A stretch of DNA of 64,000 bases from Acuticoccus yangtzensis (lineage in GTDB: Bacteria > Pseudomonadota > Alphaproteobacteria > Rhizobiales > Amorphaceae), in contig NZ_MJUX01000001.1 of assembly GCF_001927245.1 (NCBI RefSeq), forward strand, positions 434,001-498,000. Reading direction: 5' to 3'. A program made the position numbers and the translations under genes. The notes below the pieces were generated by a model, which was not told the DNA's origin, made no database searches, and saw nothing but the letters and a program-made list of their open reading frames with translations. Shown here in pieces: positions 8,413 to 54,953 of this stretch (positions within the stretch are counted from its first letter, which is position 1; each line of letters starts with the position of its first letter).

Positions 8413-8608
8413 GCCTGATCGCCGGAGCCGCCTTCGCACAAATCCCTTGGCGGAGATGGTGGTCCCTTGCCAAGGAGCCGCAGGCCGGCTTTAGCCGCTT
8501 GTCCTTGGCGAGGGGCCGCCATCTCTGCCACGCGGTGCAGGGCGAAGGTGGGTCCGGCGATCAGGCGGCCCCCTGATCGCTGGTGGGTCCCGAGCCCGCC
8601 GGAGGCCG
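8413..8608 (+). repeat. Copy 1 of a dispersed structured intergenic element
   Basis: A 196-bp element, roughly 80-85% identical by eye to 54722-54917. Segments: 8414-8425; a 28-pair hairpin (arms 8449-8476 and 8502-8529, 24 Watson-Crick and 4 G-U pairs if read as plus-strand RNA) capped by a 25-base loop; and a 12-pair hairpin (8554-8565 with 8572-8583). Segment 8414-8425 is also an exact complement of 8554-8565, so it competes with 8572-8583 for the same partner. Both neighbours are minus-strand genes. It lies just past the 3' end of the gene ending at 8713, as copy 2 lies past the gene ending at 54954. Confidence 0.8.
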
Positions 8609-8697
8609 CCATCTCTGCCACGCGGTGCAGGGCGAAGGTGGGTCCGGCGATCAGGCGGCCCCCTGATTGCTGGTGAGCCCGAGCCCGCCGGAGGCCG
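8521..8697. repeat. 90-bp tandem duplication inside the structured element
   Basis: Bases 8521-8610 and 8611-8697 are nearly identical (a few substitutions and a one-base deletion). The duplicated unit contains the distal part of the element, including the GATCAGG/CCTGATC hairpin. The second copy has CCTGATT, which changes a G-C pair to G-U in the plus-strand fold. Confidence 0.85.
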
Positions 8698-8712
8698 CGG
8701 CGCCGCCCCCGA

Positions 8713-9843
8713 TCAAGGCGCCGCCGTCACGTCGACCCACACCAGGCGATTGTCCGACGCCGGGGCGAGGCGCGCCAGTGGACGGCCGTCCGCGGGCCAG
8801 AACACGCCGGCCCCGGTCACGGCGAGGGGGCCGAAGGGCTGAACGTAGTCGACCCGCAGCCCGCCGCCGAACTCCGCGGTGGCGGCCGTGCGGGCGCCCA
8901 GAGGCGTCACCGGGACGGCGCCGGGCGCATCCAGCAGACGGGCGACGGCGCCGGGCCGGGAATCGCCGCGTGCCGGATCGGCGTTGAGGTCGCCCATCAC
9001 CACCGCGGCGGCGCCGGGTGCAAGGCCGCCCGCAACGCCAGCGTCGTCAACCGCATAGCCGCCCCCACGCGGGTCGAGCAGATCGACGAGGAGGCGGATC
9101 TCGTCGGCGTTGCGGCGGCCGTTCCAGTCGATCGCCGGATCGTCGAACACGGGCGGCGTCGGGTGCGCGGCGATCACCGTCACCGGCCCGGCGGGGGTCG
9201 CGATGCGCGCCATCAGATGCGTCTTGGAGGACAGCGGCAGCACGGCGAGCGCTTCGGCGGAATAGTACCCGTCCGGGATCAGCGCCCCCGGCACATCGCG
9301 CCACAGGAGGCCGCCGAAGGTGCGCACATCGTCGACGGGAAAGCGCGACAGGAGCGCAAAGGCATAGTGGCCCGGATGGTGGCCGAACCCCTTTGCGTCA
9401 CGCGGCCCCGCGGCGACCCCGTCACCGTCCAGATCGACGCCGGAGGGCACGCCGGTGTTGCTGACCGGAAAAAGACTGTGGGGATAATCGATCCCCTCGG
9501 CGCCGCCCTCGCCGGTGCGCAGCGCTTCGCGCATGAGGGTCAGCGCCTCGCCGGCCTCGTCCCGGTCCAGCTCCTGCAGCACCAGAACGTCGGGCGCGGC
9601 GCGCTGGATCGTCTCGACCACGAGGCGGACCTGAGGATCGCCGCCGGCCCGCAGCCGCTCCAGCACGGCGCCCGGCGCATCGTCGCTCAGCGCCGCGTTG
9701 AAGGTGGCGAAGCGGAGGGAGCCCGGCGCCTTCTGCTGCGGCTCGCCCACAGGCTGCGCCCACGCAGGAAGGGCGGCGCCGAAGAGCGCCATCAGCGCCA
9801 GCCCCAGCGCCCGGCGGCGCCCCGCCCCGTCAGTCCCCCACAA
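8713..9843 (-). CDS. Secreted endonuclease/exonuclease/phosphatase-family protein
   Basis: A 376-residue protein of the EEP superfamily (DNase I/synaptojanin fold). An N-terminal export signal (RRRALGLALMALFGAALPAWA) is followed by LRFATFNAAL, VLVLQELDRDE (metal-binding Glu), HPTPPVFDDPAIDWNGRRN, VVMGDLNADP and the closing SDNRLVW, the expected order of EEP motifs. The substrate is unknown. The start is unclear: the TTG at 9843 overlaps the upstream DUF2794 gene and has no good ribosome site; an internal ATG would shorten the signal region. Confidence 0.8.
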   Translation of the reverse strand: MWGTDGAGRRRALGLALMALFGAALPAWAQPVGEPQQKAPGSLRFATFNAALSDDAPGAVLERLRAGGDPQVRLVVETIQRAAPDVLVLQELDRDEAGEALTLMREALRTGEGGAEGIDYPHSLFPVSNTGVPSGVDLDGDGVAAGPRDAKGFGHHPGHYAFALLSRFPVDDVRTFGGLLWRDVPGALIPDGYYSAEALAVLPLSSKTHLMARIATPAGPVTVIAAHPTPPVFDDPAIDWNGRRNADEIRLLVDLLDPRGGGYAVDDAGVAGGLAPGAAAVVMGDLNADPARGDSRPGAVARLLDAPGAVPVTPLGARTAATAEFGGGLRVDYVQPFGPLAVTGAGVFWPADGRPLARLAPASDNRLVWVDVTAAP

Positions 9844-10294
9844 GGGAGAGGTGGCGCTTGCGGTCGAACACCTTCAGCACCGCGTCGAGGTCGTGGCCGC
9901 GCTTCAGGATCAGCCCCTGGCTCGACACGACGGCCCACATGCCCTGCCGCCGCGCCAGCTTGGGGGTTTTGGTGACACGGTACATCGGCACCTCGCCCAT
10001 GCGGCGGAAGATCGAGAAGACGGCGGTCTCCTTGCCGAAATCCATCGCATAATCGCGCCATTCGCCCGCGGCCACCATGCGGCCATAGACCCTGAGGATC
10101 TGCGACAGCTCGGTTCGGTGGAAGGCGACCATCGGCATCACCGGGCCGCGCTGCGGCGCGGTTTGGGCGGCGGGCTGGGCGGCGACACCGTGGGCGCTTC
10201 CCGCGGTTCCGGCACTTGCGGCCGGGGCCGCCGCCGCACCGGTCGCGCGCTGCGGCCGCAGCGGCACCACCCGACTATCCTCTGCCTCTGCCAT
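9830..10294 (-). CDS. DUF2794 domain-containing protein
   Basis: Conserved alphaproteobacterial protein of unknown function. Start chosen at ATG 10294 (MAEAEDSRVVPL) because GGAG sits six bases upstream; the ATG at 10300 directly abuts that site, and the longer open frame to 10486 is read from the htpG promoter region. The first ~60 residues are Ala/Pro-rich; the conserved part begins near PMVAFHRTELSQIL and includes GEWRDYAMDFG and FRRMGEVPMYRVTKTPKL. Divergent from htpG. Product about 154 residues. Confidence 0.85.
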   Translation of the reverse strand: MAEAEDSRVVPLRPQRATGAAAAPAASAGTAGSAHGVAAQPAAQTAPQRGPVMPMVAFHRTELSQILRVYGRMVAAGEWRDYAMDFGKETAVFSIFRRMGEVPMYRVTKTPKLARRQGMWAVVSSQGLILKRGHDLDAVLKVFDRKRHLSLVGD

Positions 10295-10355
10295 CGGCAT
10301 CTCCAGATCAGTTAGCCGCCGAAGCCTGACCTGTTCGGGCGCGGGGCGCAATCCT

Positions 10356-10384
10356 CTTGAATGCCACGCCCGAGGGGCGCATCT
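10356..10384 (+). promoter_or_regulatory. Candidate heat-shock (RpoH) promoter of htpG
   Basis: CTTGAA at 10356-10361 and GCGCATCT at 10377-10384 are spaced by 15 bases, close to the sigma-32-type pattern CTTGAA-N13-17-CCCCATNT. This would place the transcript start about 30 bases before the htpG ATG. Proposed from pattern only. Confidence 0.4.
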
Positions 10385-10420
10385 CTTGCCTATGTGCGAA
10401 CTTTCAAGCGTTGAGAGAGA

Positions 10421-12367
<1,947 letters not shown>

Positions 12368-12448
12368 CAGGCCCCGGACAACGCGACGCCCTTGCGGTGG
12401 CCGAACCCGGAACGCCACCGCGCTGCGCCCGCGCCCCCGCCGGTTGCA

Positions 12449-12816
12449 AGGGGCGGACATCCGCCCCCACCCGAGCGCAGGGGCGGATAGCCGCCCCACC
12501 CGAGCGCAGAGGGCGGACAGCCGCCCTCCTGACCGCAGGGGCCGGACAGCCGCCCCGCCCGACCGCAGAGGGCGGACAGCCGCCCCCACCCCACCGCAGT
12601 AGGCGGACAGCCGCCCTCCTGACCGCAGGGGGCGGACAGCCGCCCCGCCCGACCGCAGAGGGCGGACAGCCGCCCCCACCCCACCGCAGTAGGCGGACAG
12701 CCGCCCTCCTGACCGCAGGGGGCGGACAGCCGCCCCCACCCCACCGCAGTAGGCGGACAGCCGCCCTCCTGACCGCAGGGGGCGGACAGCCGCCCCGCCC
12801 GACCGCAGGGGGCGGT
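12449..12816. repeat. 30-bp hairpin minisatellite, about 12 units
   Basis: Each unit carries the small palindrome GGGCGGACAGCCGCCC (six-base stem, four-base loop) followed by one of three spacer types: A (CTCCTGACCGCAG), B (CGCCCGACCGCAG) or C (CCACCCCACCGCAG). After two older units the order is A-B-C-A-B-C-A-C-A-B, so the array grew partly by 90-bp steps. The last unit decays near 12816. It follows htpG by about 80 bases. Open frames across it exist on both strands but reflect only the lack of stops in GC-rich repeats. Confidence 0.9.
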
Positions 12817-12928
12817 GCCCGGCCTCCTCCGGCAAAGCGCTCCTGCATTGACGGCGCGGCCCGCATGGCCTTAACCGTCGCGCCGCCGCCGTGATCCGAT
12901 GGCGGCCCGTTCGCCGGCCGAGGCCCCG

Positions 12929-13534
12929 ATGCCCTTCTCCACCGACACGCTCCTCGCCCTCGTCACCTTCGCCTTCGTCACCACGGTGACGCCGGGGCCG
13001 AACAACTTCATGCTCGCCTCCTCCGGCGCCACATTCGGCTATTGGCGCACGCTGCCGCATATCTTCGGCGTCTGCCTCGGCTTCCCGGTGATGCTCTTCG
13101 TGGTGACGCTCGGCCTCGGCGAGATCTTCCGCACCCAGCCCGCGGTGCGCGAGGTGGTGACCGTCGCGGGGCTCGGCGTGATGCTCTACCTCGCCTTTCG
13201 CATCGCCACGCAAAACGCCGCCAAGGCGAAGAAGGGCACCGCGCGCCCGCTCGGCTTCTTCTCCGCGGCGGCCTTCCAGTGGGTGAACCCGAAGGCCTGG
13301 GTGCTCTCCATCGGCGTTGCGGCGACCTTCGCGTCGGGCCTGTCGCCGACGGCCGAAGCGGCCATCTCGGCCTTCGTCTTCCTGCTGACGGGGATGGCGA
13401 CGGCGAACGCCTGGGCGGCCGCCGGGGCGGCGCTGCAGCGGCTGCTCGGCACGGGCATCCGGCTGCGCATCTTCAACGCCGTCCTGGCGGGGTTGCTGGC
13501 GCTGTCGGCGGTGTGGATCGTCGTCGACCGCTGA
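12929..13534 (+). CDS. LysE-family amino-acid exporter
   Basis: Inner-membrane exporter of the LysE/RhtB family, 201 residues from the ATG at 12929, which has a GAGG site upstream; an open frame from 12899 adds ten residues that do not look like the family. The N-terminal motif FAFVTTVTPGPNNFMLASSGATFG is characteristic, and FQWVNPKAWVLSIG is the second conserved stretch. Six hydrophobic segments are visible. The exported substrate cannot be read from sequence. Confidence 0.9.
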   Translation: MPFSTDTLLALVTFAFVTTVTPGPNNFMLASSGATFGYWRTLPHIFGVCLGFPVMLFVVTLGLGEIFRTQPAVREVVTVAGLGVMLYLAFRIATQNAAKAKKGTARPLGFFSAAAFQWVNPKAWVLSIGVAATFASGLSPTAEAAISAFVFLLTGMATANAWAAAGAALQRLLGTGIRLRIFNAVLAGLLALSAVWIVVDR

Positions 13535-13595
13535 GGCCCGGCCCGCGCGCCAGATGGCGCTTGCGGCGGGGCGTGAGTTGGCGCAAAGGGTTTCG

Positions 13596-14798
13596 ATGCC
13601 CGTGCCCATCTCCCCGTTCGACCGTCTTCGCAGCCTGATCGGCGACACCCCCGCCGGTGCCCCGGTGATCGACCTTTCGGTCGGTGTCCCCAAGCACGCC
13701 CCGCCGGATTTCATCCTTCCGGTGCTGGCCGCCTCGGCCGACGGCTACAGGCCCTATCCGGCGATCACCGGCACCCCCGCCTTCCAGGCCGCGATCCACG
13801 ACTGGCTGGACCGCCGCTACGCGCTGGACGGATGGTTCCGCGACGTCGGCGCAGTCCTGCCTCTCGCCGGGAGCCGCGAAGGCCTGGTCCTCTCGGTGGT
13901 CACGGCGCGCGATCTTCTGGCGAAGGACAACCCCGTCGTCCTCCACGCCAACCCCTACTATCAGGCCTATCTGGGAGCAGCACACATGATCGGCGCGGAG
14001 GCGGTGGGCGTTCCCACCCCGCCGACCGGCTCGCCACTGCCGGACTTCAGCGCCATCCCGGACGCGACGCTGGACCGGGCGATCGCCTACTATTTCGGCT
14101 CGCCCTCCAACCCGGCGGGGCTGACCGCGTCGAAGGCCGACTGGCACAACCTGTTCGACCTCGCCGAGAAACACGACTTCTTCCTTTTCGCAGACGAGTG
14201 CTACTCGGAGATCTACCGCGAGGAGGCCGGCCCGCCCGCCGGTGCGCTGGAGGCCGCGCGCGAACGGCCGGAGGCGCTGAAGCGGCTCATCGTCCTCAAC
14301 TCCCTCTCCAAGCGGTCGAACTTGGCGGGTATGCGCATCGGCTTCGTCGCCGGCGACAGGGAGGTCATGAAGGCGATGACCACCATGCGCAATCAGATTG
14401 CGAGCCAGGTGCCGGTGCCGCTGCAACAGGCCGCCATCGCCTGCTACCAGGACGAGGCGCACGTCGCCGAAAACCGCCGCCTCTACGACGCCAAGTTCGC
14501 CGCGGCGGATGCGATCCTCGGCCCCGTCTTCGGCGGCCCGGTGACGCCTCCGGGCGGCTTCTGCCTGTGGCTCCCGGTGGCGGACGACATCGCCTTCGTG
14601 AAGGCGCTCTGGGCCGAAGCCGGTGTTCGCGCCCTCCCCGGCAGCCTCCTCGCCACAGGCGAGGGTGCGGCCAATCCGGGGCGCGGGCGCATCCGCCTCG
14701 CCGTCGTCTCGCCCTACGACGAGGCCTGCGAGGGTTTCCGCCGCATCGCCGCCCTGATGCAGCGCGAGGGCGCCGTTCGCGAGTTGGCCGCGGGGTAA
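13596..14798 (+). CDS. Pyridoxal-phosphate-dependent aminotransferase (class I/II)
   Basis: A 400-residue fold-type I aminotransferase. The PLP lysine lies in NSLSKRSNLAGMRIGF, with ADECYSEIY (Asp/Tyr cofactor contacts) and SPSNPAG before it, and RIRLAVV near the C-terminus for the substrate carboxylate. Among subfamilies it most resembles the alphaproteobacterial succinyldiaminopimelate transaminase (DapC-like) group, but no lysine gene is adjacent, so the substrate stays open. Start at ATG 13596 (MPVPISPFDRL) with AAAGGG upstream; an ATG at 13554 would add 14 residues. Confidence 0.87.
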   Translation: MPVPISPFDRLRSLIGDTPAGAPVIDLSVGVPKHAPPDFILPVLAASADGYRPYPAITGTPAFQAAIHDWLDRRYALDGWFRDVGAVLPLAGSREGLVLSVVTARDLLAKDNPVVLHANPYYQAYLGAAHMIGAEAVGVPTPPTGSPLPDFSAIPDATLDRAIAYYFGSPSNPAGLTASKADWHNLFDLAEKHDFFLFADECYSEIYREEAGPPAGALEAARERPEALKRLIVLNSLSKRSNLAGMRIGFVAGDREVMKAMTTMRNQIASQVPVPLQQAAIACYQDEAHVAENRRLYDAKFAAADAILGPVFGGPVTPPGGFCLWLPVADDIAFVKALWAEAGVRALPGSLLATGEGAANPGRGRIRLAVVSPYDEACEGFRRIAALMQREGAVRELAAG

Positions 14799-14975
14799 CC
14801 CGCGCCACCGCCGGGTTACCTCCCCGGAGCGCGCATTAAGAAAGCGGTAACCCATGGGTTACCTCAAGTTGCAAACAGCGCCGCCGCACCAGCCAACACC
14901 GCCGGCCAACCAACCCTGCACCATCCCGCCCCAAGTCCGCGTCCACGGCCGGGCAAACGCACCGCGGCGGTCCCC

Positions 14976-15125
14976 TGCCTTGCGTCCCGGAGCCAGCCAT
15001 CGCTGATGCCCGGTGGAGCGGAAAGGCGTGGGGGCTGCAAGGGTTCAAGCGGAGCGGCCCTTGCGGCGCCCACGCCTTTTCGCTCAGGGCATCATCAGCG
15101 ATGGCTGGGTCAGGGACGCAAGGCA
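14976..15125. repeat. 150-nt imperfect palindrome between convergent genes
   Basis: The two arms can form about 61 base pairs closed by a 14-base loop (15044-15057). Uninterrupted blocks include 14976-14988 with 15113-15125, 14996-15007 with 15094-15105, and 15016-15032 with 15069-15085, broken by a few mismatches and small bulges. It lies between the aminotransferase (plus, ends 14798) and the universal stress gene (minus, ends 15191). No T-run follows. The remaining bases of the 14799-15190 gap show nothing further. Confidence 0.8.
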
Positions 15126-15190
15126 ACGCCCTGCGACCTGGTGAAGCCGGAGCGCCCGTGAGGCGCCGCCGCCCGCCGCACCGGCGCCGA

Positions 15191-15655
15191 TCAGACGATC
15201 GCGTCGATCTCTTCTTCGCTGAGGCCGCCTGGAACGATGGTGATGGGGACCGGGTAGGCGCCCGCCTGTCCGCCGGCGATGGCGCTGACCAGAGGTCCGG
15301 GCCCCTCGGAGCCCTGGGCGGCGGCCAGCACCAGCACCATGATGGCCGGGTCCTCGGCGATCGCCTGGCGGATCCCTTCGATCCGGTTGGCGATCACCAC
15401 CTTGCGCTCGGGCTCGGCGGGCAGCTTCGGCGCCATCTTGGTGAGGACGCGGTCCAGCATTTCCTGGGCCTCTTCCTCGGCCTCTTCGCGCATCAAGTTC
15501 TCGACACCCAGCCAGTGCTGGAACTCCGACGTGGCGGCGATGCACAGGGCGACGACGCTCGCCCCCGTCTTCGCCGCGCGCTTGGCGGCGTAGATGATCG
15601 CCAGCTCACATTCGGGCGTCTCGTCGACGATGACGAGAAACTTGCGCGCGCTCAC
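15191..15655 (-). CDS. Universal stress protein (UspA family)
   Basis: A 154-residue UspA-fold protein: KFLVIVDETPECELAIIYAAKRAAKTGASVVAL at the N-terminus is the nucleotide-fold strand-helix-strand unit. The usual C-terminal ATP loop G-x2-G-x9-G-S/T is not clear, so ATP binding is uncertain. The start is a GTG that overlaps the lolA stop as GTGA. It therefore probably shares an mRNA with lolA. Confidence 0.82.
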   Translation of the reverse strand: MSARKFLVIVDETPECELAIIYAAKRAAKTGASVVALCIAATSEFQHWLGVENLMREEAEEEAQEMLDRVLTKMAPKLPAEPERKVVIANRIEGIRQAIAEDPAIMVLVLAAAQGSEGPGPLVSAIAGGQAGAYPVPITIVPGGLSEEEIDAIV

Positions 15656-16269
15656 CGAGGAGAGTCGCCGCGCAGCGGAATGTAGTTGATCTCGAACAGG
15701 TCCGGATCAACGCTGACGCCGGTGGACACGTTGTAGATCGACACGGACGTTTCCTGCCCTTTGCCGTCGATCACGTTCCACTGCTTCAGCTCCTTGGTCT
15801 CCGCGTCGAAGAGCAGCGTCAGCGCGCCTTCGCCGAAGGCCGTGTTCTCCTCGATGCGCACGGAGATCAGGTCCGGCGCCACCTCGACGTCGGTCACCTT
15901 GGCGTCTTCGGTCAGGTTGATGGTGTTGTCGAGGAGGAAGCGGAGCGGCGTCTTCGACAGCGGCCAGATGTCCTGCGTGTTGCGGCGGCGATCGCGCACG
16001 GCGACGGACTGGCCGTCGGCGATGATGTCGAGCGTCGACGGACGGTCGTAGAAGAAGCGCACCTTGCCGGGGCGGGAGATGGCGAAGCGTCCCTGGGTGC
16101 GTGAGCCGTCCGGACCGAACTGGACGAATTCGCCCCGCATGGTGTGGATGGCATTGAAATAGCTGTTGATCTCGGTCAGCGCCTGGTCGGTGGCGGCGTG
16201 GGCGGTCGACGCGAGCGGGGCCGTCACAAGGGCGGCGGCGAGAAGTGCATTACGAACAAGCCTGTTCAT
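15652..16269 (-). CDS. lolA: Outer-membrane lipoprotein carrier protein LolA
   Basis: Periplasmic chaperone that ferries lipoproteins from the inner to the outer membrane. Start at ATG 16269 with a strong GGAGGACC site; the longer frame to 16362 lacks both a site and a signal start. The signal peptide MNRLVRNALLAAALVTAPLA ends near AHA-AT. Conserved sequence follows: YFNAIHTMRGEFVQ, QGRFAISRPGKVRFFYD and FLLDNTINL. 205 residues. lolA commonly lies beside ftsK in this group; here a PPOX-family gene lies between. Confidence 0.9.
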   Translation of the reverse strand: MNRLVRNALLAAALVTAPLASTAHAATDQALTEINSYFNAIHTMRGEFVQFGPDGSRTQGRFAISRPGKVRFFYDRPSTLDIIADGQSVAVRDRRRNTQDIWPLSKTPLRFLLDNTINLTEDAKVTDVEVAPDLISVRIEENTAFGEGALTLLFDAETKELKQWNVIDGKGQETSVSIYNVSTGVSVDPDLFEINYIPLRGDSPR

Positions 16270-16449
16270 CGCGGTCCTCCGAATGGGTGGTCGACCCTGT
16301 GATGCGAGGGTTCGCCTGTCTGGCCGGTGAATGAGCACACCCGGCCGGTCCGGGGCAACCATCCCGTTTCAGCCTTAACGAACCGTCACCGTTCTTCGCG
16401 CGATCTCGCACAGGACGCTTGCCGAAGGTCAACCAATTTCGCGCCGCGC

Positions 16450-17079
16450 TCATGCGGCTTTCAGCGCGGCCAGCTCGGCCTCCAGCTCGGCGATGCGCTG
16501 GTGCAGCGGCGCGGCGGCGGCGGCGATCTCCTCGCGCGTAAAACGCGGCGTGATGTGCTGCGGGCAGTTCCAGTCGAACGCCTCGACCTTCACCGTGACG
16601 GCACGTTCCACGCGGGCGCGGTAGCCGGGCACGGCGAGGCGGGCGGCAAGCTCGGGCGCGTCGGCCGCCTCGGCCACGCTCATGCGGCCGATGAGCTTGA
16701 TGCGCGCCTGCCGGGCGTGATCCAGAACGATGAGGGAGACGCGCGGATCGGCCGCGACATTGCCGACCGAAATATATTGGCGGTTGCCGCGAAAGTCCGC
16801 CCAGCCGATCGTCAGCGGGTCGAGGACGCGCAGGAAGCCTTTGGGGCCGCCGCGAAACTGAACATAAGGCCAGCCGCTTTGCGACACCGAGGCCAGGAAG
16901 AAGCCGTCCTGCTCGGCGAGGAAAGCGGCCTCCTGCGGGCCGAGCCCCGCCTCGACGCCGGAGGCTGCGGCATCCTCCGGCGCGGCGGCGGCGCGGGCGT
17001 AGGTGTCGCGCGAGCCGTAGCGGCTTTGGACCGCCTGGACGGCGGGGGTGAACATCGTCGTCTGGTAGCGCTGGCGCAT
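16450..17079 (-). CDS. Pyridoxamine 5'-phosphate oxidase-family flavin protein
   Basis: A 209-residue split-barrel FMN-binding protein. ATG 17079 is preferred because GGAGG lies six bases upstream; an ATG at 17109 adds ten residues. Family sequence: FLASVSQSGWPYVQFRGGPKGFLRV, GNRQYISVGNVAADPRVSLIVLDH and ARIKLIGRMSV. It ends with WNCPQHITPRFTREEI and a short Ala/Leu/Glu helix that may be a coiled coil. This is the subgroup often annotated as general stress or pyridoxamine oxidase-like, not PdxH. The ~180 bases between it and lolA hold a GGCCGG/CCGGCC hairpin only. Confidence 0.85.
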   Translation of the reverse strand: MRQRYQTTMFTPAVQAVQSRYGSRDTYARAAAAPEDAAASGVEAGLGPQEAAFLAEQDGFFLASVSQSGWPYVQFRGGPKGFLRVLDPLTIGWADFRGNRQYISVGNVAADPRVSLIVLDHARQARIKLIGRMSVAEAADAPELAARLAVPGYRARVERAVTVKVEAFDWNCPQHITPRFTREEIAAAAAPLHQRIAELEAELAALKAA

Positions 17080-17200
17080 CAGGTCCTCCGAGCCGAGAAT
17101 CCGTGGCATGGCACGTCGTGGCGCGAGAGGATCGAGATGGTGACGCCATCGCCGCCGCGCCGCTCACATCACCGCGATTGCGCACAAGTTGATCACGCAC

Positions 17201-17231
17201 AAAAAAAGCGCGCCGGTGGCCCGGCGCGCTT
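17201..17231 (-). terminator. Rho-independent terminator of ftsK
   Basis: On the minus strand an AAGCGCGCCGG/CCGGCGCGCTT stem with a four-base loop is followed by a run of T residues (the A-run at 17201-17207 on the plus strand). It begins about 25 bases after the ftsK stop codon. Confidence 0.85.
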
Positions 17232-17255
17232 CGATCTCGGCGATGGCTGCCCGCG

Positions 17256-42922: not shown

Positions 42923-42931
42923 GCGTTGCGG

Positions 42932-44446: not shown

Positions 44447-44711
44447 GACAGCGTGCGGACGAAATGTCACGCCGATTTTAGGCTTCGTGCAATGGCCTCG
44501 GCGATCCTCAGAATGTTTTAAGAATGAGAGGGATCGCTGCCATCCCACCCGTTCATTTTAGTACTATCTTGCGTGAGTCACAATTTCGTGATGCTCTTAT
44601 TGCCTCGACTTGTGCCTGAGTTCTGACGTAATTTGAGAAATGAAATCCTTTTCATCGTATCTTGTTCGTTCAAGATTCGAAGGTTTTTCTCACATATGGT
44701 GAGGAGGCGGG
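44447..44711. promoter_or_regulatory. AT-rich upstream region of the alpha/beta hydrolase gene
   Basis: This is one of the few AT-rich intergenic stretches in the window. It contains a perfect inverted repeat ATCTTG-(6 bases)-CAAGAT at 44659-44676, 36 bases before the start codon, followed by a short T-run. It could be an operator, or a leader hairpin. Confidence 0.45.
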
Positions 44712-45506: not shown

Positions 45507-45728
45507 GGCGCCCTCGCGGGCCTCGCCGCGCTCGCAACGCCCGCCGCCTCGCTTCTCCCTTATCGCGCCGACCGCCCCGCTTCGCCCGCCTGTGCCGACG
45601 CCGATTTGCCGGCGCGCCGATTGCGGAGAGGACACTGCACGATTGCAAGAGCCGCGCGGACAGGCCACCATCTGCGGATGCGCCCGCGCAAGACGGGGGT
45701 GGGACTGACCGCGCGACGGGTGAGGCTG

Positions 45729-46868: not shown

Positions 46869-46948
46869 GCGGTCCGCTCGCCGTGCGGTGAGGCGGCCTC
46901 CAGAGGCGCAGCCGGAGGCGTGAGCCGCCGACGTTCGGCCGCCGCGGT

Positions 46949-48085
46949 TCAGGTGAGCGGGAGGGCGGCGCGGATGGTGCCGTCCGGCTCGCGCTCGGCC
47001 TGCCCTCCCAATTCCAGTTCCACCAGCGCCGCGGTGACGAGACCGGCCGGAAGCCCCGTCGCGCGGATCAGCATGTCGAGCGGCACCGCCGTCAGCGACA
47101 GGGCGGTGGCGACGGTGGTGATGGCGTCGGCGGGCATCTCCTGCGGCAGGCGGGCGCCCGTGTCGGCGGCGTCGTCGAAGATGTCCGGCGCTTCGGCGAA
47201 ACCTGGGAGCATTGGCGCGTCGGTGGTGCCGATCGCGTCCATGACGTCGCGCGCGGTGGTGGCGAGGCCTGCGCCGTCCTTCAGCAGCGCCAGGCAGCCG
47301 GCGGCGCGCGGGTCGAGCGGCGATCCGGGCACGGCGAACACGTCGCGCCCTGCGGCGGCGGCGAAGTTGGCGGTGTGGAGCGAGCCGGAGCGCGCCGCGG
47401 CCTCCACCACCAGGACACCGCGCGAGAGGCCCGCGATGAGGCGATTGCGCCGCACGAAGAGCCGCGCCGTGGGTTCCACGCCGAGCGGCATCTCGGACAG
47501 GATGGCGCCGTCCTCGGCGATTGCGGCGTGGAGGTCGGCGTTGGCCTCGGGGCGCGGCTTGTCGACCCCGCCGGCGACCACGGCGACGGTGCCGGTGGGG
47601 AGCGCGCCGCGGTGGGCCTCGGCGTCGATGCCGAGCGCCAGGCCCGAGGCGACGGTCCACCCCTCGCGCCCGAACTCCGCGGACCAGGTCCGGGCGATGG
47701 TGCGCCCGGCGGCCGAGGCCTGGCGCGAGCCGACGACGCCGATGGTGGGCCGCGCCGCCAGCGACAGGTCGCCGAGGACCGCGATCACGGGCGGCGGACC
47801 GTCGATCTCGGCCAGGAGCGCGGGGTAGGCGCGGCCGCCGAAATAGACGAAGTGGGCGCCGGTGCGGTTGGCGGCGGCCATCTCCCGCTCGATCAGCGCC
47901 GGCTCGGCGACGGCGATGGGGCGGCGCAGGCCCCCCGCGGCGGCGAGGTCCGGCAGGGCGGCGAGGGCCGCGGCGGCGGTGCCGAAGCGGCGCATCAGGG
48001 TGTGGAAGGTCTCCGGCCCGACATTTTCCGAGCGGATGAGGCGCAGCCAGTCGAACTCTTCGGCGTGGCTGGCGGGCGGCTTCAT
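46949..48085 (-). CDS. dprA: DNA-processing protein DprA
   Basis: 378 residues. It binds single-stranded DNA and loads RecA during transformation. The Rossmann-like SMF core has [53 protein letters not shown] and [16 protein letters not shown]; a C-terminal winged helix (~310-378) ends the protein. It overlaps the plsY stop by four bases (ATGA at 48082-48085), as is often seen in alphaproteobacteria. Confidence 0.94.
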
Positions 48086-48696
48086 TTCTTGCCGATCCGG
48101 CTTTCCTCACCCTTCATGAGGCGGGCGATGTTGGCGCGGTGCTTGAACCAGAGGAGCGCGGTGAGGACGCCGAAGACTTCGGCATATTGGATCTCGCCCC
48201 GGACGGCGAGGATGAAGGGCACGCACAAGGAGCCGAGGAGCGCCGACAGCGACGAGTAGCGCGTGACGATGGCGGTGGTGAGCCAGATGCCGCACAGAGC
48301 GAGGCCGGTGGGCCAGGAGGCGGCCAGGAGCACGCCGATATAGGTGGCGACGCCCTTTCCGCCGCGGAAGCCGAGCCAGACCGGGAAGAGATGGCCGAGG
48401 AAGGCGCCCAGCGCCGCGGTGACGACGAAATCCGCCCCGCCATAGTGCCAGCCGAGGAGCACCGGAACGGCGCCCTTCAGCGCGTCCAGCACCAGGGTGG
48501 CGGCGGCGATGTCCTTGCGGCCCGTGCGCAGGACGTTGGTGGCGCCGATGTTGCCGGAGCCGATCTTGCGCACGTCCCCCAGCCCGGCGAGGCGGGTGAG
48601 GATGAGGCCGAAGGGGATCGACCCCGACAGGTAGCTGAGGGCGAAGACGGCGGCGAAGTACGGCCACACGGCGGCCCAACTGATCGGATCCGGCAT
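48082..48696 (-). CDS. plsY: Glycerol-3-phosphate acyltransferase
   Basis: Inner-membrane enzyme using acyl-phosphate to acylate glycerol 3-phosphate. Motifs: [26 protein letters not shown] (substrate phosphate loop) and [12 protein letters not shown]; about five membrane segments, 204 residues. ATG 48696 has a GGGGAGAGG site; the frame upstream is not family sequence. Together with plsC it supplies phosphatidic acid. Confidence 0.94.
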
Positions 48697-48841
48697 CCTC
48701 TCCCCAAGGACTATCAACCATATTGGGGCGATGAGTGGCCGAAAGCGGAGGCGGACGCAAGTCAGCCGTTGATGCTGACGGCGGGGACGGTTACATCTTA
48801 CCGACGGACGGGTGTGAGGGTCCGTTAGTGGGGATGCCGCG

Positions 48842-50518
48842 TTGCACAAGACGATGGACGACACGCTGAACCGGCGCGTCGGCATTCGCCGCGCGGCGGA
48901 GCCCGTGCCGGCTCCCGTGCGTCCGCAGACCTATGCCGGTCTGAACACCTATGCGTCGGACCCGGTGCTGACCGCGGCGCTCGATTCGACGCTCGACGAG
49001 GCGACAGAGGACAAGCTGAAGGCGCTCGGGGCCTATTGGGGTTCGGCCGAAGCGCAAGAGGTCGCGCGGATCGCCAGCGCCAGCCCGCCGCAGCTTCGCC
49101 GTACGGACTTCGACGGCTACCGCGTCGACCAGGTGGAGCTTCACCCCGCCTTCCATGCTCTGGTGAACCGCAGCGTCACCGCGGGGCTCGCCTGCTCGGC
49201 CTGGGAGGACGGGGAGGACCGCCGCCAGCACCGCCTGCGCGCCGCCGGGCTCTATCTCACCGCGCAGTGTGATCGCGGCCACCTCACCTTGGTCTCGTCC
49301 ACCCATGCATCGGTCGCCGCGTTGGCCTATGCCAGCGACCTCGAGGCGGAGCTGTTCCCGCTGATCGCCACCCGCCGCTATGACCGCAAGGCCGTGCCGC
49401 TGGCCGAGAAGGACGGCGCGACGGTGACTTTGGCGCTGACCGAGCGCGACACAGGCGCCGACCGCGCGGCGATGACGATGCGCGGCGAGATCATCGGCGG
49501 CGACCGCATGAGGGTGACGGGCGACAAATGGTTCGTCGCCGCGCCGACGGCCGATGCCGCACTGGTGCTCGCCCGCACGATCGAGGGGCCGACGGCCGCG
49601 CTCGTTCCGCGCTACGCACCGGAGAACGAAGGCACGGTGGAGATCGACGCGCTGCGCGACGTGGGCGGGCTGCGCTCGCAGGCGATCGCGGCGGTCGCCT
49701 TCCACGGGTCGACGGGGCGGATCCTGGGCGAGCCGGGGCGCGGCCTCACCGTGCTGCGGGACGTGCGCACGCTGCTGCAGCTCGACTGCGCGATCATGGC
49801 CGCGGGGACGATGCGCGCGGCGGTTGGCCGTGCGGTGCACCACGCGCGCTACCGCGAATCCTTCGGCAAGCTCCTCGTCAACCACCCGCTGCATGCGCGC
49901 GTTCTGGCCGATCTGGCGCTGGAGAGTGCGGCCCACACCGCGCTCGCCATGCGCGTCGCCGCCGCGTTCGACCAGGCGTTCGAGCGGGACGGCGACCATG
50001 CTCTGGCCCGCCTCGTCACCCCCGCCGCGCGGCTTTATGCGATGACCGTTGCGCCGCAGGTGACGATGGCGGCCGCCGATGCGATCGGCGCCTCAGCGTT
50101 CGACGCCGCGCACCCCGTGGCGCGGATGCATGCGGACATGGGCGCCCTCTCCATCTGGGACGGGACGGCGAGCGAGGCGGCGATGGACCTCGCCACCCAG
50201 GTGGGCCGCGACCAGACGGTGTTGCAGGACGCGCTGGGCGAGCTCGGCGGCGATCTCGGCAACGCCAATGCGGACCTGATCGAGGACACGCTGGAGCTGG
50301 GCGAGAGGGCGGCGGGCGACGTCACCCTGGCGCGCGCCTTCGGCGAGCAGCTGGCGATGGTGGCGGCGGCCTCGGCGATGCGGCGCAACCTGCCGCGGGT
50401 GATCGCCGACGCCTATATCGCGACGCGCCTGCGCGAACGCTTCCGCGCCGGGTTCGGCACGCTGGACGGCCGCTTCGACGCCGCCGCGATCATCGACTTC
50501 ATCGTCCCGGAAGACTGA
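48842..50518 (+). CDS. Acyl-CoA dehydrogenase-family protein, AidB type
   Basis: 558-residue flavoprotein-fold protein. The N-terminal [20 protein letters not shown] and later [43 protein letters not shown] and the long helical C-terminus match the AidB (DNA alkylation response) subfamily rather than a fatty-acid oxidation enzyme. DNA binding for AidB is known in E. coli; it is not shown here. It is transcribed alone, divergent from plsY. Confidence 0.82.
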
Positions 50519-50605
50519 GTCGGGCGGGGCGCCCCCCCAACTGATCCGCGCCACAGACCGCGACGCCATTCCATCGATCGTTTCCCGTTTTCGGAGCGGG
50601 TCAGG

Positions 50606-50674
50606 GTCAAGCACCCGCCCGGACCCACGCGCAGCCCGTCTTGGGGGCGAGCATGGGGAGGACGGGTGCTTGAC
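50606..50674. repeat. Inverted repeat in a convergent gap
   Basis: Perfect 12-base arms GTCAAGCACCCG (50606-50617) and CGGGTGCTTGAC (50663-50674) separated by 45 bases. It lies between the convergent AidB-like gene and hyuB. The remaining part of the 314-base gap (50519-50832) has a small GTCCT/AGGAC hairpin near 50715 and no gene. Confidence 0.7.
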
Positions 50675-50832
50675 GCTGTCACGGTCCGACCCAGCCTTGA
50701 CGCTGACGCTTCAGTCCTTCTTCAGGACGGAACGGCTGCCTGCCGGCGAGGCGGAGTGGAGCGCGAGGAGGGGAACCCTCCTCGCTGAGGCCGCGCCCGT
50801 CGCGACATGCCCCCCGTAAAGGCGCGGCGTTA

Positions 50833-52500
50833 TCAGTCGCCCCTGTAGGCGTCGTCGGCGGCGCGCGCGGCGGGCGTGCGGCGGGAGGGGTCGCCGTAGC
50901 CGCCGCCGCCGGGGGTCAGCACCTCGATCCAGTCGCCCTCGTGGAGCACGTAGCCTTCACCCTTGGAGAGATGCTCGGGCGTGGTCACGCGCCCCGCCTG
51001 ACCGATGCGGATGCGGTTGGGAAGCCCCGCCTCGCCGCCCAGGATGCCGGGGGGGCCGAAGCGGCCGTGCTCCATCAGGAACGAGGCCTTCCCCTCCCCG
51101 CGCAGCATGCGGAAGCGGTAGTCGAGGCCGTAGCCGCCGCGGTGCTCTCCGGCGCCGGCCGACCCCTCGCGGATGTTGTAGCGCTCGAACAGGAGCGGAT
51201 AGCGCTGCTCCAGGATCTCGACCGGCTGGTTCTTGGAGATGCCGATGGTGGAGCAGCCGTTGGTGAGGCCGTCGCCGCCCCACCAGCCGCCGTAGCCGCC
51301 GCCCGAGAAGGTGTACATGATGTAGTTCTGGCCGGTGGCGGGGTCGTAGCCGCCCAGCGACAGGTTGCCGGACGAGCCGGCGCCCGCGGCAAAGAGTTTG
51401 CCGGGGATCGCCTCGGCCAAGGTGAGGCACACCGCTTCCACGATGCGCTGGGAGGTTTCGGACGCGCACCCCGCAACGGGGCGCGGCTCCTCGGCTTTCA
51501 AGAACGTCCCTTCGGTGCCGGTGACGGTGAGCGGGGCGAAGCAGCCGGCGTTCATCGGCAGGTCCGGGAAGATGTGCTTGATGGCGACATAGACCGCCGA
51601 GAGGGTGGACGCCCAGACCGAGTTCATCGGCCCGCGGCAGGGCGGCGAGGAGCGGGCGAAGTCGAGAGTGAGGTCCGACCCCGCGACGGTGGCGGTGCAG
51701 GCGATCTCGAGCGGCGCGTCGACCACGCCGTCGGAATCCATGTAGGCGCTGGCGCTGTAGGTTCCGTCGGGGATGGCGGCGACGTGGGCGCGCATCAGCG
51801 CTTCGCCGCGGCGCTCCAGCTCGGCGATGGCGGCCTCCACGGTGGCCTCGCCGTAGCGATCGAGGAGCGCGGTGAGGCGCTTCACCCCGGTGGCGAGCGC
51901 CGCGATCTGGGCCTTGATGTCGCCGATCCGCTCGGACGACACGCGCACGTTGGCGAGGACGATGCGGATGATGTCCTCGTCCATCGCGCCCTCGCGCACG
52001 AGGCGCACCGGGGGAAGGCGCAGGCCCTCCTGATAGATCTCGGTGGCGGTGGAGTTGAACCCGCCGGGGACCATGCCGCCGGTGTCGGGCCAGTGGCCGG
52101 TGTTAGCGAGGTAGCACCAGAGGCGGCCGCGATAGTAGAAGGGCCGCACCATCTTCACGTCCATGAGGTGGGTGCCGCCCATGTAGGGGTCGTTCACCAG
52201 CACCACGTCGCCGTCCTTCAGGTCGGTTCGGTCGGCGATGACGGCGCGGGTGGTCTCCTGCATGACGCCGAGGAAGATGGGTAGCCCCATGGCGCCCTGG
52301 GCGATCATGCGCCCGTCCTCGCGGTGGTAGATGCCGTTGGAGCGGTCCAGCCCCTCGGAGATGACGGGCGAGAAGGAGGTCTTCTCGTGGACGAGGTCCA
52401 TTTCCGAGCAGACCTGCTGCAGCCCCTTCTCGATCACCGTGAGGGTGACCGGGTCGATCCCGGAGGTGGAGGTGGCGGAGGTGGTGGCGGCGCGGTCCAT
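50833..52500 (-). CDS. hyuB: Hydantoinase B / oxoprolinase family subunit
   Basis: 555-residue subunit of an ATP-dependent amidohydrolase (N-methylhydantoinase, 5-oxoprolinase or acetophenone carboxylase type). DPVTLTVIEKGLQQVCSEMD at the N-terminus, DVVLVNDPYMGGTHLMDV, LANTGHWPDTGGMVPGG and TPGGGGYGDPSRR at the end are typical. ATG 52500 shares a base with the hyuA stop (TGATG), so the two are co-translated. The precise substrate cannot be read. Confidence 0.92.
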   Translation of the reverse strand: MDRAATTSATSTSGIDPVTLTVIEKGLQQVCSEMDLVHEKTSFSPVISEGLDRSNGIYHREDGRMIAQGAMGLPIFLGVMQETTRAVIADRTDLKDGDVVLVNDPYMGGTHLMDVKMVRPFYYRGRLWCYLANTGHWPDTGGMVPGGFNSTATEIYQEGLRLPPVRLVREGAMDEDIIRIVLANVRVSSERIGDIKAQIAALATGVKRLTALLDRYGEATVEAAIAELERRGEALMRAHVAAIPDGTYSASAYMDSDGVVDAPLEIACTATVAGSDLTLDFARSSPPCRGPMNSVWASTLSAVYVAIKHIFPDLPMNAGCFAPLTVTGTEGTFLKAEEPRPVAGCASETSQRIVEAVCLTLAEAIPGKLFAAGAGSSGNLSLGGYDPATGQNYIMYTFSGGGYGGWWGGDGLTNGCSTIGISKNQPVEILEQRYPLLFERYNIREGSAGAGEHRGGYGLDYRFRMLRGEGKASFLMEHGRFGPPGILGGEAGLPNRIRIGQAGRVTTPEHLSKGEGYVLHEGDWIEVLTPGGGGYGDPSRRTPAARAADDAYRGD

Positions 52501-54521
52501 CAGGAAAGCTCCACGATGATGTTGCCGACGTGGTCGATGGTGGCGCGGCTGCCGGGGTCCAGCACCAGGGTGGAGTCGGCCTGCTCGACGATGGCGGGGC
52601 CGTCGATCACCGCGTCGGCGGGAAGGTGTTCGCGCAGGTAGATGGCGGCGTCGTGCCATTCGCCGGCGAAGAAGGCGCGGCGGGTGCCCTGGTGCGCGGC
52701 TTCCATGGAGCCGCCGGAGGGGGCGAAGACGGCGAGGTCCACCTTCTCGCGCAGGCCGACGATGGTGGTGCGCACGTTGGCGAGGATGGGCACCATCTCG
52801 GGAAATTCCAGCTCGAAGCGGGTGCGGTAGGCCTCCGCGAAGGCGGCGAGCACGGCCGCGGCGTCGAAGCGGTCGCCGGTGATGGGGACGCGCAGGACGT
52901 GGGTCTGGCCTTTGTAGAGGAGGTCGGCCTCGTGGATGATCTCGACCCTCCGGACGGCGACCTTCTCGCGCTCCAGGAGGGCGCGGCCGGCGCCGGCCTG
53001 GGCGGCGAGTATTGCGTCGACCGCGCCCGGCTGAAGGGCGGCGACGGGGGTGCTGACGGTCTGCACGAAGTCGTGGCGGACATCGGCGAGGATGCAGCCG
53101 AGGGCGGAGGTGAGGCCGGGGAAGCGCGGCACGACGATGCGCGGGATGCCGAGTTCGCGGGCGATCTCGACGGCGTGGAGCGGTCCGGCCCCGCCGAAGG
53201 GCATGTAGGCGAAGTCGCGCGGGTCGTGGCCCTTTTCGATGGAGACGAGGCGGATGGCCCCGGCGAGCTCGGCGATGGCGATCTTGACGATCGCGTCGGC
53301 GGCGCCTGTGGCGTCGAGGCCCAGCGGCGCGCCGAGGGCGTCCAGCGCGGACTCGACCGCGGCGAGCGGTGCCTCCCCCGCCCCGGTCACGGCGCCGGGA
53401 TTGAGGCGGCCGAGGTGGAAGTTGGCGTCGGTGATGGTGGGGACGGTGCCGCCGCGGCCGTAGCCGATGGGCCCCGGCGTGGAGCCTGCGCTTTCGGGGC
53501 CGACGCGCAGCATGCCGGCCGCGTCGATGGTGGCCAGCGACCCGCCGCCGGCGCCGACGGTGTGGATGTCGATCATGGGAATGCGGATCGGCACCCCGTA
53601 GGCGAGGTCCTTCTCGGCGGAGATGACGGGTTCGCCGCCGACCACCAGGGCGACGTCGAAGGAGGTGCCGCCCATGTCGCCGGTGATGATGTTGGCGTGG
53701 CCTGAGGCGCCGGCGATGGCGGCGGCGGCGAGCACCCCGGCGGCGGGTCCGCTCATGACGGTCTGCACCGCCTGCTCGGCGACGAGGGAGGCGGCGAGCA
53801 TCCCCCCGTTGGCCTGCATGACGAGGAGTTCGTTGCGGAATCCGCGCCCCGCCAGCTCGCTCGCGACGGAGGTGATGTAGCGGGAGACGATGGGGCCGAT
53901 GCCGGCGTGGATGGCGGCGGTCGAGGCGCGCTCGAACTCGCGCACCTCGCGGATGATCTCGTGCCCGGCGACGACGTGCTCGTTGGGCCAGATCGCGCGC
54001 ACGATGGCGGCGGCGCGGGCCTCGTGGGCATCGTTCACGTAGGAATGCATGAAATGGACGACGACGCTTTCCACCCCTTCGGCCAGCAGGGCGCGGGCCT
54101 CGCGCTCCACGGCCGCCTCGTCGAGCGGGACCACCACGGCGCCGGTGGCGTCGATCCTTTCGGCCACCTCGCGGCGGAGGCGGCGGGGGATGAGGGGCGT
54201 GAAGTTGCCGGAGAGGCCGTAGGGCTTGGGCCGGGTGCGGCGGCCGAGTTCCAGCGTGTCGCGGAAGCCTGCCGTGGTGATGATGCCGGTGGGGGCGTTC
54301 TTGCGTTCCAGGACCGCGTTGGTTCCGGCAGTGGTGCCGTGGACCAGCCAGTCAATGGCGCCTGGGGCGACGGCGAGGCGGTCGATCCCGTCGAGGAAGC
54401 CGCGCGCGCGGTCGTCGGTGGTGGTGGGGACCTTGGCGGTGCGGAAGGTCGACGCGGCGGCGTCGAGCAGCAGGAAGTCGGTGAAGGTTCCGCCGACATC
54501 GACCCCGACGCTGAGCGTCAT
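52500..54521 (-). CDS. hyuA: Hydantoinase A / oxoprolinase family subunit
   Basis: 673-residue ASKHA-fold ATPase subunit. VGVDVGGTFTDFLLLD is the phosphate-1 loop, HGTTAGTNAVLERKNA follows, then MSGPAAGVLAAAAIAG and ITGDMGGTSFDVALV, and FGGAGPLHAVEIARELGI in the C-terminal half. ATG 54521 is preferred over the open frame to 54614 because the domain begins there. Partner of hyuB. Confidence 0.93.
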   Translation of the reverse strand: MTLSVGVDVGGTFTDFLLLDAAASTFRTAKVPTTTDDRARGFLDGIDRLAVAPGAIDWLVHGTTAGTNAVLERKNAPTGIITTAGFRDTLELGRRTRPKPYGLSGNFTPLIPRRLRREVAERIDATGAVVVPLDEAAVEREARALLAEGVESVVVHFMHSYVNDAHEARAAAIVRAIWPNEHVVAGHEIIREVREFERASTAAIHAGIGPIVSRYITSVASELAGRGFRNELLVMQANGGMLAASLVAEQAVQTVMSGPAAGVLAAAAIAGASGHANIITGDMGGTSFDVALVVGGEPVISAEKDLAYGVPIRIPMIDIHTVGAGGGSLATIDAAGMLRVGPESAGSTPGPIGYGRGGTVPTITDANFHLGRLNPGAVTGAGEAPLAAVESALDALGAPLGLDATGAADAIVKIAIAELAGAIRLVSIEKGHDPRDFAYMPFGGAGPLHAVEIARELGIPRIVVPRFPGLTSALGCILADVRHDFVQTVSTPVAALQPGAVDAILAAQAGAGRALLEREKVAVRRVEIIHEADLLYKGQTHVLRVPITGDRFDAAAVLAAFAEAYRTRFELEFPEMVPILANVRTTIVGLREKVDLAVFAPSGGSMEAAHQGTRRAFFAGEWHDAAIYLREHLPADAVIDGPAIVEQADSTLVLDPGSRATIDHVGNIIVELS

Positions 54522-54953
54522 TGCGTTGCCTCGGTCATGGCGTTCCCCCGTCCCCGGCGGCCCCCTCTGGGCTGCGTCGACGACGATGGAAGCGCCGGTG
54601 CGCGGTGCTGTCAACGCGCGCGGAAGTTGTTTGAGCGCAAATGATCAGCGACGATGCGTCCTGCCCGCAATTGAGGCGGTCCCGCCTGCCGCGCAACGCT
54701 CACGGGGAGCGGGTCCCCTCAGCCTGATCGCTGGAGCCGGTCGTCGCGCAAATCCCTTGGCGGAGGCGGTGGTACGCGCGCAAGGAGCCGCAGGCCGGCT
54801 TCAGCCGCTTGTCCTTGCGCGTGTGCCGCCGTCTCTGCCACGCGGTGCAGCGTGACGGCTGGATCTAGTGATCAGGCGGCCCCTGATCGCTGGTGAGGCC
54901 CGAGCCCGCCGGAGGCTGAGGCGTTCCCGAAGCGCGCGGCGCCCCCCTCCCCG
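54522..54953. other. Gap upstream of hyuA, mostly filled by a repeat element
   Basis: 432 bases. Bases 54722-54917 are copy 2 of the structured element. The first 200 bases should hold the hyuA promoter; none was recognised with confidence. No gene is supported. Confidence 0.6.
54722..54917 (+). repeat. Copy 2 of a dispersed structured intergenic element
   Basis: Counterpart of 8413-8608. The long hairpin (54759-54786 with 54812-54839) again has 28 pairs, and the short one (54865-54876 with 54882-54893) 12 pairs. Compared with copy 1, seven long-stem pairs differ on both sides yet stay paired. The loop GCCGCAGGCCGGCTTCAGCCGCTTG differs by one base only and is written here in the two parts GCCGCAGGCCGG and CTTCAGCCGCTTG. 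Lies 3' of the transglycosylase gene in the same orientation as copy 1 lies to its neighbour. Confidence 0.8.

What the first reader, a model, noticed from the sequence alone, without database searches (positions are those of the whole stretch)
8413..54917. Dispersed hairpin element whose stem changed by compensating substitutions
Two copies (8413-8608, 54722-54917) share one fold. In the 28-pair stem, pairs 8457/8521, 8464/8514, 8466/8512, 8467/8511, 8468/8510, 8469/8509 and 8470/8508 differ on both sides in copy 2, and all stay paired; one more pair changes on a single side to a G-U wobble. The 25-base loop is almost unchanged. All non-Watson-Crick pairs are G-U when the plus strand is read as RNA (they would be A-C on the other strand). 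This pattern points to selection on an RNA, or on a DNA hairpin, rather than to chance. I do not recognise it as a named repeat family.
Basis: partly seen in the sequence, partly recalled or inferred. Interest (0 to 1): 0.82.

Follow-up and report, generated by a model that had tools for sequence, protein, structure and literature searches.

The report
Mobile hairpin repeat, folded single strand
The two hairpins belong to a family of about 42 scattered copies in a marine bacterium, whose paired bases change together in a way that fits only if one particular strand folds up on its own, so this looks like a small jumping sequence that tends to sit after the ends of genes rather than a chance palindrome.

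Summary
In detail: in the 28-pair stem seven pairs change on both sides between the copies and stay paired, and one changes to G-U. They are two of 42 places in the genome that match the whole family model; by size the genome is Acuticoccus yangtzensis JL1095T. The window holds a third copy at 14978-15145. Over 24 copies, 27 of 64 pairs show both-sided change and 97.5% of cells pair; no shuffle of 500 did as well. The fold belongs to one strand: G-T 68, A-C 1; 71 of 71 cores cut fold better on it. New: a third segment, a', just past the hairpin repeats its 5' foot and covaries with it and with the 3' foot (0 of 2000 shuffles). None of 42 lies inside a gene call; 20 of 41 lie between convergent genes. 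Sites differ between species. Y1 transposase and reverse transcriptase were found in 0 of 8 Acuticoccus genomes. Best reading: a new MITE/REP-like mobile repeat whose folded single strand (RNA or ssDNA) is selected. Enzyme and movement are inferred; terminal repeats and target duplications were not shown.

The parts
8413..8608 (+). copy 1 of the element (main hairpin 8413-8566, then a' and tail)
8413..8425 (+). segment a, 5' foot of copy 1
8554..8566 (+). segment b, 3' foot of copy 1; pairs with a and can pair with a'
8572..8583 (+). segment a', direct repeat of a, followed by the conserved tail
8604..8697 (+). partial tandem repeat of the 3' half of copy 1
   Evidence: 97% over query 102-196
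14978..15145 (+). copy 3, divergent, with other loop and other a/b/a' (a 14978-14990, b 15111-15123, a' 15130-15141), between convergent genes
54722..54917 (+). copy 2 of the element (a 54722-54734, b 54865-54877, a' 54882-54893)
7654..8220 (-). flanking gene, Nfu/NifU-like scaffold protein; copy 1 lies upstream of it
8713..9792 (-). flanking gene, Exo_endo_phos family; its stop faces the tail of copy 1
52500..54521 (-). flanking gene, hydantoinase A; copy 2 lies upstream of it
54954..55544 (-). flanking gene, SLT_4 transglycosylase; its stop faces the tail of copy 2

Best explanation
It is a non-autonomous mobile repeat of the MITE/REP kind, about 200 bp, that spreads into the gaps just after genes. 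Shown: a dispersed family; a long hairpin kept by compensating changes; a fold that fits only one strand; three segments a, b, a' that change together, b able to pair with a (long hairpin) or more weakly with a'; copies outside genes; sites that differ between species where this could be compared. Inferred: that the form selection acts on is the single sense strand (ssDNA or RNA) as the substrate of an enzyme supplied in trans, with b pairing to a or to a' marking the two ends, and that placement after stop codons is where insertions are preferred or least harmful. Hairpins at 3' ends may also protect or end the neighbours' mRNAs, as is known for REP sequences (general knowledge).
For: 42 places matching the whole model and one partial in the own genome; present in 6 of 8 congeneric genomes; two other copies are 98% and 97% identical to copy 1 over 196 and 194 bases. 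Covariation. Strand: G-T 68 against A-C 1; RNAalifold -113.1 on the sense strand and -44.5 on the other for the same alignment; 71 of 71 cores cut. Three-way covariation: own a and a' agree at 8.13 of 9 bases against 5.94 shuffled, a' pairs with b at 8.47 against 6.81, 0 of 2000 shuffles; b:a' pairs in 95.7% of cells; leaving out the outermost base, a-to-a' differences keep pairing with b in 18 of 24 where a random base gives 6.0. Mobility: in a syntenic operon the element is between genes C and B in the own genome but between B and A in a congener, each lacking it at the other junction; 0 of 7 congeners have it within the 1.5 kb flanks of nfu, the site of window copy 1. Context: 0 of 42 inside gene calls; of 41 with two neighbours 20 convergent and 3 divergent, against gaps of 82 convergent, 310 co-directional, 79 divergent in the same stretches, some of which overlap.
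Against: No transposition was observed and no target-site duplication could be defined. The outer inverted repeat that I suspected does not hold: of 25 copies 10 have CGAGGCG upstream, 3 have CGCCTCG downstream and 1 has both. No cognate enzyme was found: Y1_Tnp and RVT_1 in 0 of 8 congeners; IS110 genes do not track the element (present in G002 and G006, which lack it; not found in G007, which has it but is 89% complete). With the outermost base counted, 17 of 37 a-to-a' differences break pairing with b. In related-looking sequences on rhizobial plasmids a equals a' over 7-8 bases of 9 but the best pairing of a with the 45 bases before a' is only 5-8 of 9, and the consensus fold shows no clear strand preference (-8.2 against -6.3, one of nine rows cut short). 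Orientation against local GC skew is weak (27 of 42).
Confidence: 0.5

Rival explanations
1. A functional RNA: the sense strand is transcribed and the a/b/a' segments form a switch or a processed 3' end that serves the host.
For: One-strand wobble bias and alternative pairing with b:a' weakened by C-to-T (45 of 65 kept triples have C in a and T in a' before GG). The head-side gene would transcribe the sense strand in 26 of 41 copies with both neighbours.
Against: In 15 of 41 the head-side gene points away, among them both copies given in the finding. No sigma-70-like promoter and no intrinsic-terminator-like site by the simple scan around copies 1 and 2. The site of copy 1 is not conserved in 7 of 7 congeners. 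No Rfam match at gathering score.
Confidence: 0.26
2. A 3'-end hairpin for both flanking genes (bidirectional terminator or mRNA stabiliser, as for REP/BIME) kept by the host at each site.
For: Enriched between convergent genes; a stop facing the tail in 32 of 41, at a median of 49.5 bp from a'.
Against: Service to both genes predicts no strand bias, yet the bias is extreme; no terminator-like site with a T run around copies 1 and 2; not conserved in place where compared.
Confidence: 0.12
3. No selection on structure: paired changes come from template switching within palindromes during replication.
For: Stem changes often come in blocks (by eye), as such events would give (recalled knowledge of quasipalindrome correction).
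Against: It would leave perfect Watson-Crick arms or equal G-T and A-C mismatches, not 68 to 1; and a' lies outside the palindrome but tracks a while keeping a C/T difference.
Confidence: 0.06
4. A REP-type repeat moved by a RAYT (IS200/IS605-like Y1 transposase), or a retron or group II intron relic.
For: Single-strand hairpin and placement after genes resemble REP (PMC3733652).
Against: PF01797 and PF00078 found in 0 of 8 congeners while 5 and 3 of 14 control genomes rang.
Confidence: 0.05

Closest known systems
MITEs of bacteria such as ERIC, Correia/NEMIS, RUP
   Same: Small (about 100-200 bp), dispersed, long stem-loop (PMC2229807, passages seen).
   Different: No terminal inverted repeat, target duplication or parent transposase shown here; marked one-strand wobble bias and a third covarying segment, which the passages seen do not mention. 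That review has MITEs in and between genes; here 0 of 42 lie inside a gene call.
REP / BIME with RAYT (GTAG REPs)
   Same: Mostly downstream of genes; hairpin recognised as single strand (PMC3733652, abstract and passages seen).
   Different: REP stems are 5-13 bp with a GTAG tag and Y1 transposases; here 64 consensus pairs and no Y1 gene found.
CGTC-tagged REPs, most in Alphaproteobacteria
   Same: Palindromic, alphaproteobacterial, said to lack a dedicated transposase (PMC3733652).
   Different: Stems of 8-9 bp and loops of 4-5; ours is several times longer with another architecture.
CIR elements of Caulobacter and Brucella
   Same: Dispersed intergenic inverted repeats of Alphaproteobacteria (PMC2229807, passages seen).
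   Different: CIRs have two arms with a linker and a GANTC site; 70 cores of ours (10,544 bases) hold 1 GANTC, and none lies at the three window copies.

Membership tests
REP with RAYT | Y1 tyrosine transposase in the genome | tested here: not met
   PF01797 in 0 of 8 Acuticoccus genomes; 5 of 14 control genomes rang
REP with RAYT | short 20-40 bp palindrome with 5-13 bp stem | tested here: not met
   64 consensus pairs over 158 columns
REP with RAYT | GTAG tag at one foot | not tested
   no count was made
CGTC REP | 8-9 bp stem, 4-5 nt loop | tested here: not met
   consensus fold against the description in PMC3733652
CIR | GANTC methylation site in a loop | tested here: not met
   1 GANTC in 70 cores; none at the three window copies
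MITE | non-coding, dispersed, multi-copy, sites differ between related genomes | tested here: met
   42 places, none inside a gene call; two sites compared differ
MITE | terminal inverted repeats | tested here: not met
   candidate CGAGGCG upstream in 10 of 25, CGCCTCG downstream in 3 of 25, both in 1 of 25; the hairpin itself is an inverted repeat but is not shown to be terminal
MITE | target-site duplication | tested here: inconclusive
   no empty site close enough in sequence to define the ends
MITE | parent element with the same ends and a transposase | not tested
   no genome-wide search for longer elements with these ends was made
retron / group II intron / DGR | reverse transcriptase in the genome | tested here: not met
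   PF00078 in 0 of 8 genomes; 3 of 14 control genomes rang
known RNA family | match to an Rfam model | tested here: not met
   none at gathering score at these places in the window or at the element in 14 relatives' loci; best permissive match at copy 1 E 0.23

The most novel reading that the evidence does not exclude
A mobile element that addresses its own ends by base pairing: b is a built-in guide that pairs with a at one boundary and with a' at the other, and a/b/a' can be re-written together (CTGATCGC, CTGACCGT, CTGTTCCC, TTGCGTCC, CATCCTTT versions), so that a lineage of elements changes its address while its scaffold stays. It would move as a folded single strand in a genus where neither a Y1 transposase nor a reverse transcriptase was found.
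Probability: 0.15. Interest if true: 0.87.

Novelty: new variant of a known kind. Interest (0 to 1): 0.62.

Why it matters
Small palindromic repeats are common, but it is rarely clear whether DNA, RNA or ssDNA is the selected form. Here the wobble bias names the strand, and a third covarying segment gives a testable clue to how the ends are recognised. The copies are numerous and diverse enough to work the mechanism out by mutation and comparison, in a genus where the usual Y1 and RT suspects were not found.

Tried and rejected
Rfam at gathering and permissive thresholds: only chance-level microRNA models at the element; in the window only suhB and a tRNA elsewhere; 14 relatives' loci gave one ALIL pseudoknot hit away from the element. 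RAYT/IS200, retron/group II: no gene found. IS110: no correlation. Phage origin: 0 viral contigs with the loop pattern; one 50-base match for a type-2 copy in 'phages'. Replication-strand preference: 27 of 42 along positive local GC skew, not convincing. IS256 link: on two Bradyrhizobium plasmids a short form sits just after a transposase gene (PF00872 in L117; the L118 gene looks alike by eye), but no inverted repeat joining the ends of that insertion sequence was found in L117. CIR: GANTC. Outer terminal repeats: suspected by eye, not borne out by the count. A class-wide DNA pattern search was badly written (it misses the own genome; its 4 hits of 385 are disregarded). The first gene-calling script was trained wrongly and replaced. 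The first wobble count let internal loops pair (G-T 486, A-C 144 over 70 cores, still biased) and was replaced. Dropped rows: L013 was left out of the 24-copy alignment A2 because another repeat replaced its 5' foot. One search lost L142 to a text rule, and not every copy fetched was cut into the 70-71 cores (for example L078, L084, L117, L118 and L143 were not); 77 copies put in, 12 dropped because the text rule for a or a' failed (L008, L013, L022, L024, L040, L092, L124, L132, L133, L140, L141, L143), 65 kept; two of these (L006, L012) were wrongly extracted but stayed in the shuffles; they were removed. Model searches over more than 40 genomes score few candidates each (14 or 7), so the scarcity outside the genus is a lower bound.

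Full report
What was checked. The two stretches given are real and align without trouble. The 28 pairs are part of a longer hairpin of 64 consensus pairs.

The family. A DNA search of the window's own genome found 25 distinct copies plus the partial tandem repeat at copy 1 (reverse-strand matches of the palindromes and pieces under 40 bases not counted). A covariance model (R2, built from 27 copies of this and other genomes) gave 77 rows in the same genome, which fall into 43 places once antisense shadows are merged: 42 that match the whole model and the partial one. One of the 42 (C24, locus L013) has its 5' foot replaced by another repeat. R2 was built partly from these copies, so high scores for them are expected. 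The window itself holds a third copy at 14978-15145 (85.8 bits, E 9e-14). The own genome has 5,043,263 bases, the size printed for Acuticoccus yangtzensis JL1095T (PMC5747140, abstract). A copy in the congener G004 is identical over 169 bases to NZ_CP094833.1, Acuticoccus sp. I52.16.1, so the genus is Acuticoccus. In the genus 6 of 8 genomes carry the element; G002 and G006 had no match. One contig of G003, 109.5 kb long, carries ten copies.

Spread outside the genus is thin. The Mameliella copy shows the whole architecture with a'; in Parvularcula the hairpin is there but I saw no clear a'. Model searches found a short form in G056 (one of 5 positive genomes of 199 in the order, the other four being Acuticoccus; sequence) and, weakly (E 0.007), in G291 (one of 2 positive of 385 in the class, the other being the own genome; sequence). 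Short forms also lie on three Bradyrhizobium plasmids. The large searches score few candidates per genome, so absence is weak evidence.

Covariation. On 24 copies of the own genome 97.5% of 1525 cells are standard pairs, 27 of 64 pairs show a change on both sides, and no shuffle of 500 reached any of the five measures; slides of the register give 30-48% pairing. On 35 copies from several genomes the figures are 95.9%, 31 of 56 pairs, 0 of 500. The structure came from the same alignments, which helps it against slides; the shuffles do not allow for relatedness.

One strand. Taking only column pairs where Watson-Crick is the majority, the remaining cells are G-T 68, A-C 1, other 33 in the first set (57 of 64 pairs kept) and G-T 144, A-C 7, other 71 in the second (55 of 56 kept). 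RNAalifold on the reverse complement of the first alignment gives -44.5 against -113.1 kcal/mol, and there the odd pairs are A-C 21, G-T 1. In the mixed set A4, aligned less well, the reverse complement gives -24.1 against -47.8 with G-T 24, A-C 20, so the bias is blurred there. A separate set of 26 type-2 copies gives G-T 104, A-C 4. Folded singly, 71 of 71 cores cut are more stable on the sense strand, by 6.9 to 48.9 kcal/mol. This is the strongest result: the selected form is one strand. RNA and ssDNA cannot be told apart: with the DNA setting the sense strand is also better in 71 of 71.

A third segment. 3' of the hairpin lies a' (for example CCTGATCGCTGG), which repeats the 5' foot a (CCTGATCGCCGG); b, the 3' foot, can pair with either. 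The sequence of a differs between copies (CCTGATCGC, CCTGACCGT, CCTGTTCCC, CCTGTTTCG, CTTGCGTCC and others), and a' follows it: 8.13 of 9 bases agree within a copy against 5.94 after shuffling, over 53 unique triples, and 8.0 against 5.86 over 25 unique triples of the own genome; 0 of 2000 shuffles in both (65 of 77 copies kept). The b:a' helix pairs in 95.7% of cells on 35 copies, 0 of 500 shuffles as high, while its count of both-sided pairs (4) is reached by 52 of 500. Where a and a' differ, leaving out the outermost base, 18 of 24 differences keep pairing with b against 6.0 expected for a random base; with that base 20 keep and 17 lose. In 45 of 65 kept triples a has C and a' has T just before GG, which makes b:a' the weaker partner.

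Where it sits. With my own simple gene caller, 0 of 42 copies fall inside a gene call; of 41 with two neighbours, 20 lie between convergent genes, 18 between co-directional and 3 between divergent genes, against gaps of 82, 310 and 79 in the same stretches (some stretches overlap, and overlapping genes are not counted as gaps); in 32 of 41 the tail-side gene has its stop facing the element, at a median of 49.5 bp from a'. In an earlier count over 35 copies, 25 own and 10 of congeners, 23 were convergent and 30 had the tail-side stop. Among 24 type-2 loci with two neighbours only 9 were convergent but 20 had the tail-side stop, and of six further G003 copies 5 were convergent. The two copies of the finding lie between two minus-strand genes and point the other way.

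Mobility, inferred. In an operon shared with G004, the own genome has the element between genes C and B and G004 has it between B and A; in each the other junction is closed, with genes overlapping. Within the 1.5 kb flanks of nfu, the site of window copy 1, 0 of 7 congeners have the element. Two other copies are 98% and 97% identical to copy 1, so some spread looks recent. No enzyme could be named: Y1 transposase and reverse transcriptase families gave 0 of 8 genomes, with 5 and 3 of 14 control genomes ringing, and IS110 does not track the element.

What speaks against. A pair of outer inverted repeats that I suspected by eye is present on both sides in 1 of 25 copies only, so terminal repeats are not shown, nor is a target duplication. 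The relatives near mobC-traA on rhizobial plasmids (88 plasmid records matched part of one such region, 15 of them over 80% of it; I examined nine) share the loop and a nearly equal a/a' pair, but b matches a at only 5 to 8 of 9 bases, and the fold is not clearly strand-biased: -8.2 against -6.3 in consensus, with one of the nine cut too short by my script; of the other eight, six fold better on the plus strand. So equality of a and a' may have another reason there. No RNA-seq was available.

Known kinds. By general features this is a MITE/REP-like intergenic palindromic repeat. It fails the tested marks of REP with RAYT, CGTC REP, CIR and Rfam families, and the terminal-repeat mark of MITEs is not met as tested (see the table); so I say it works like a MITE, not that it is proven to be one. 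I found no description in print in these searches of an open library; most subscription papers are not in it, and the original CIR paper was not read.

Verdict. Real, and more than the finding claimed: a repeat family with strong evidence of one-strand folding selection and a three-segment covariation. The mechanism (mobility as a folded single strand, ends told by pairing) is the best reading at about one half.

Noticed in passing
L022 and L024 from about 1668 on; L013 upstream of 1500 (own genome): A second small repeat with two hairpins (AGAACTGCGCTGTTGCGCAGTTCT and CAAAGTCCGCAACAGCGGACTTTG) is inserted in or beside three copies of the element; a core of the first motif is in 8 of 206 fetched loci, some of which overlap; the second was not found in the window.
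   Followed up: partly
L112 around 1500-1536; L114-L116, L145-L150: A relative with the same loop and nearly equal a/a' lies upstream of mobC/traA-type genes on rhizobial plasmids (88 plasmid records matched at least part; loci seen, the last without annotation), near a GGCAGGATAC sequence that, from memory, resembles a relaxase nick site.
   Followed up: partly
L117 3001-3103, L118 3001-3104: Short form of the element just after the stop of a transposase on two Bradyrhizobium plasmids (PF00872, Mutator/IS256 type, in L117).
   Followed up: partly
G000 contigs C8 (28.4 kb) and C7 (30.8 kb); G003 contig C12 (109.5 kb): Copies are dense on some contigs: 4, 2 and 10. The operon on C8 resembles a plasmid-borne sugar (acylneuraminate-type) gene cluster in G004.
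   Followed up: no
window 57368-57441 (-): suhB/mmgR small RNA, 76.2 bits.
   Followed up: no
L110 1501-1567, L111 1501-1547: The hairpin tip motif (CAAGG..CCTTG around an AGAGCG loop) occurs with other arms on Methylobacterium and Methylorubrum plasmids.
   Followed up: no
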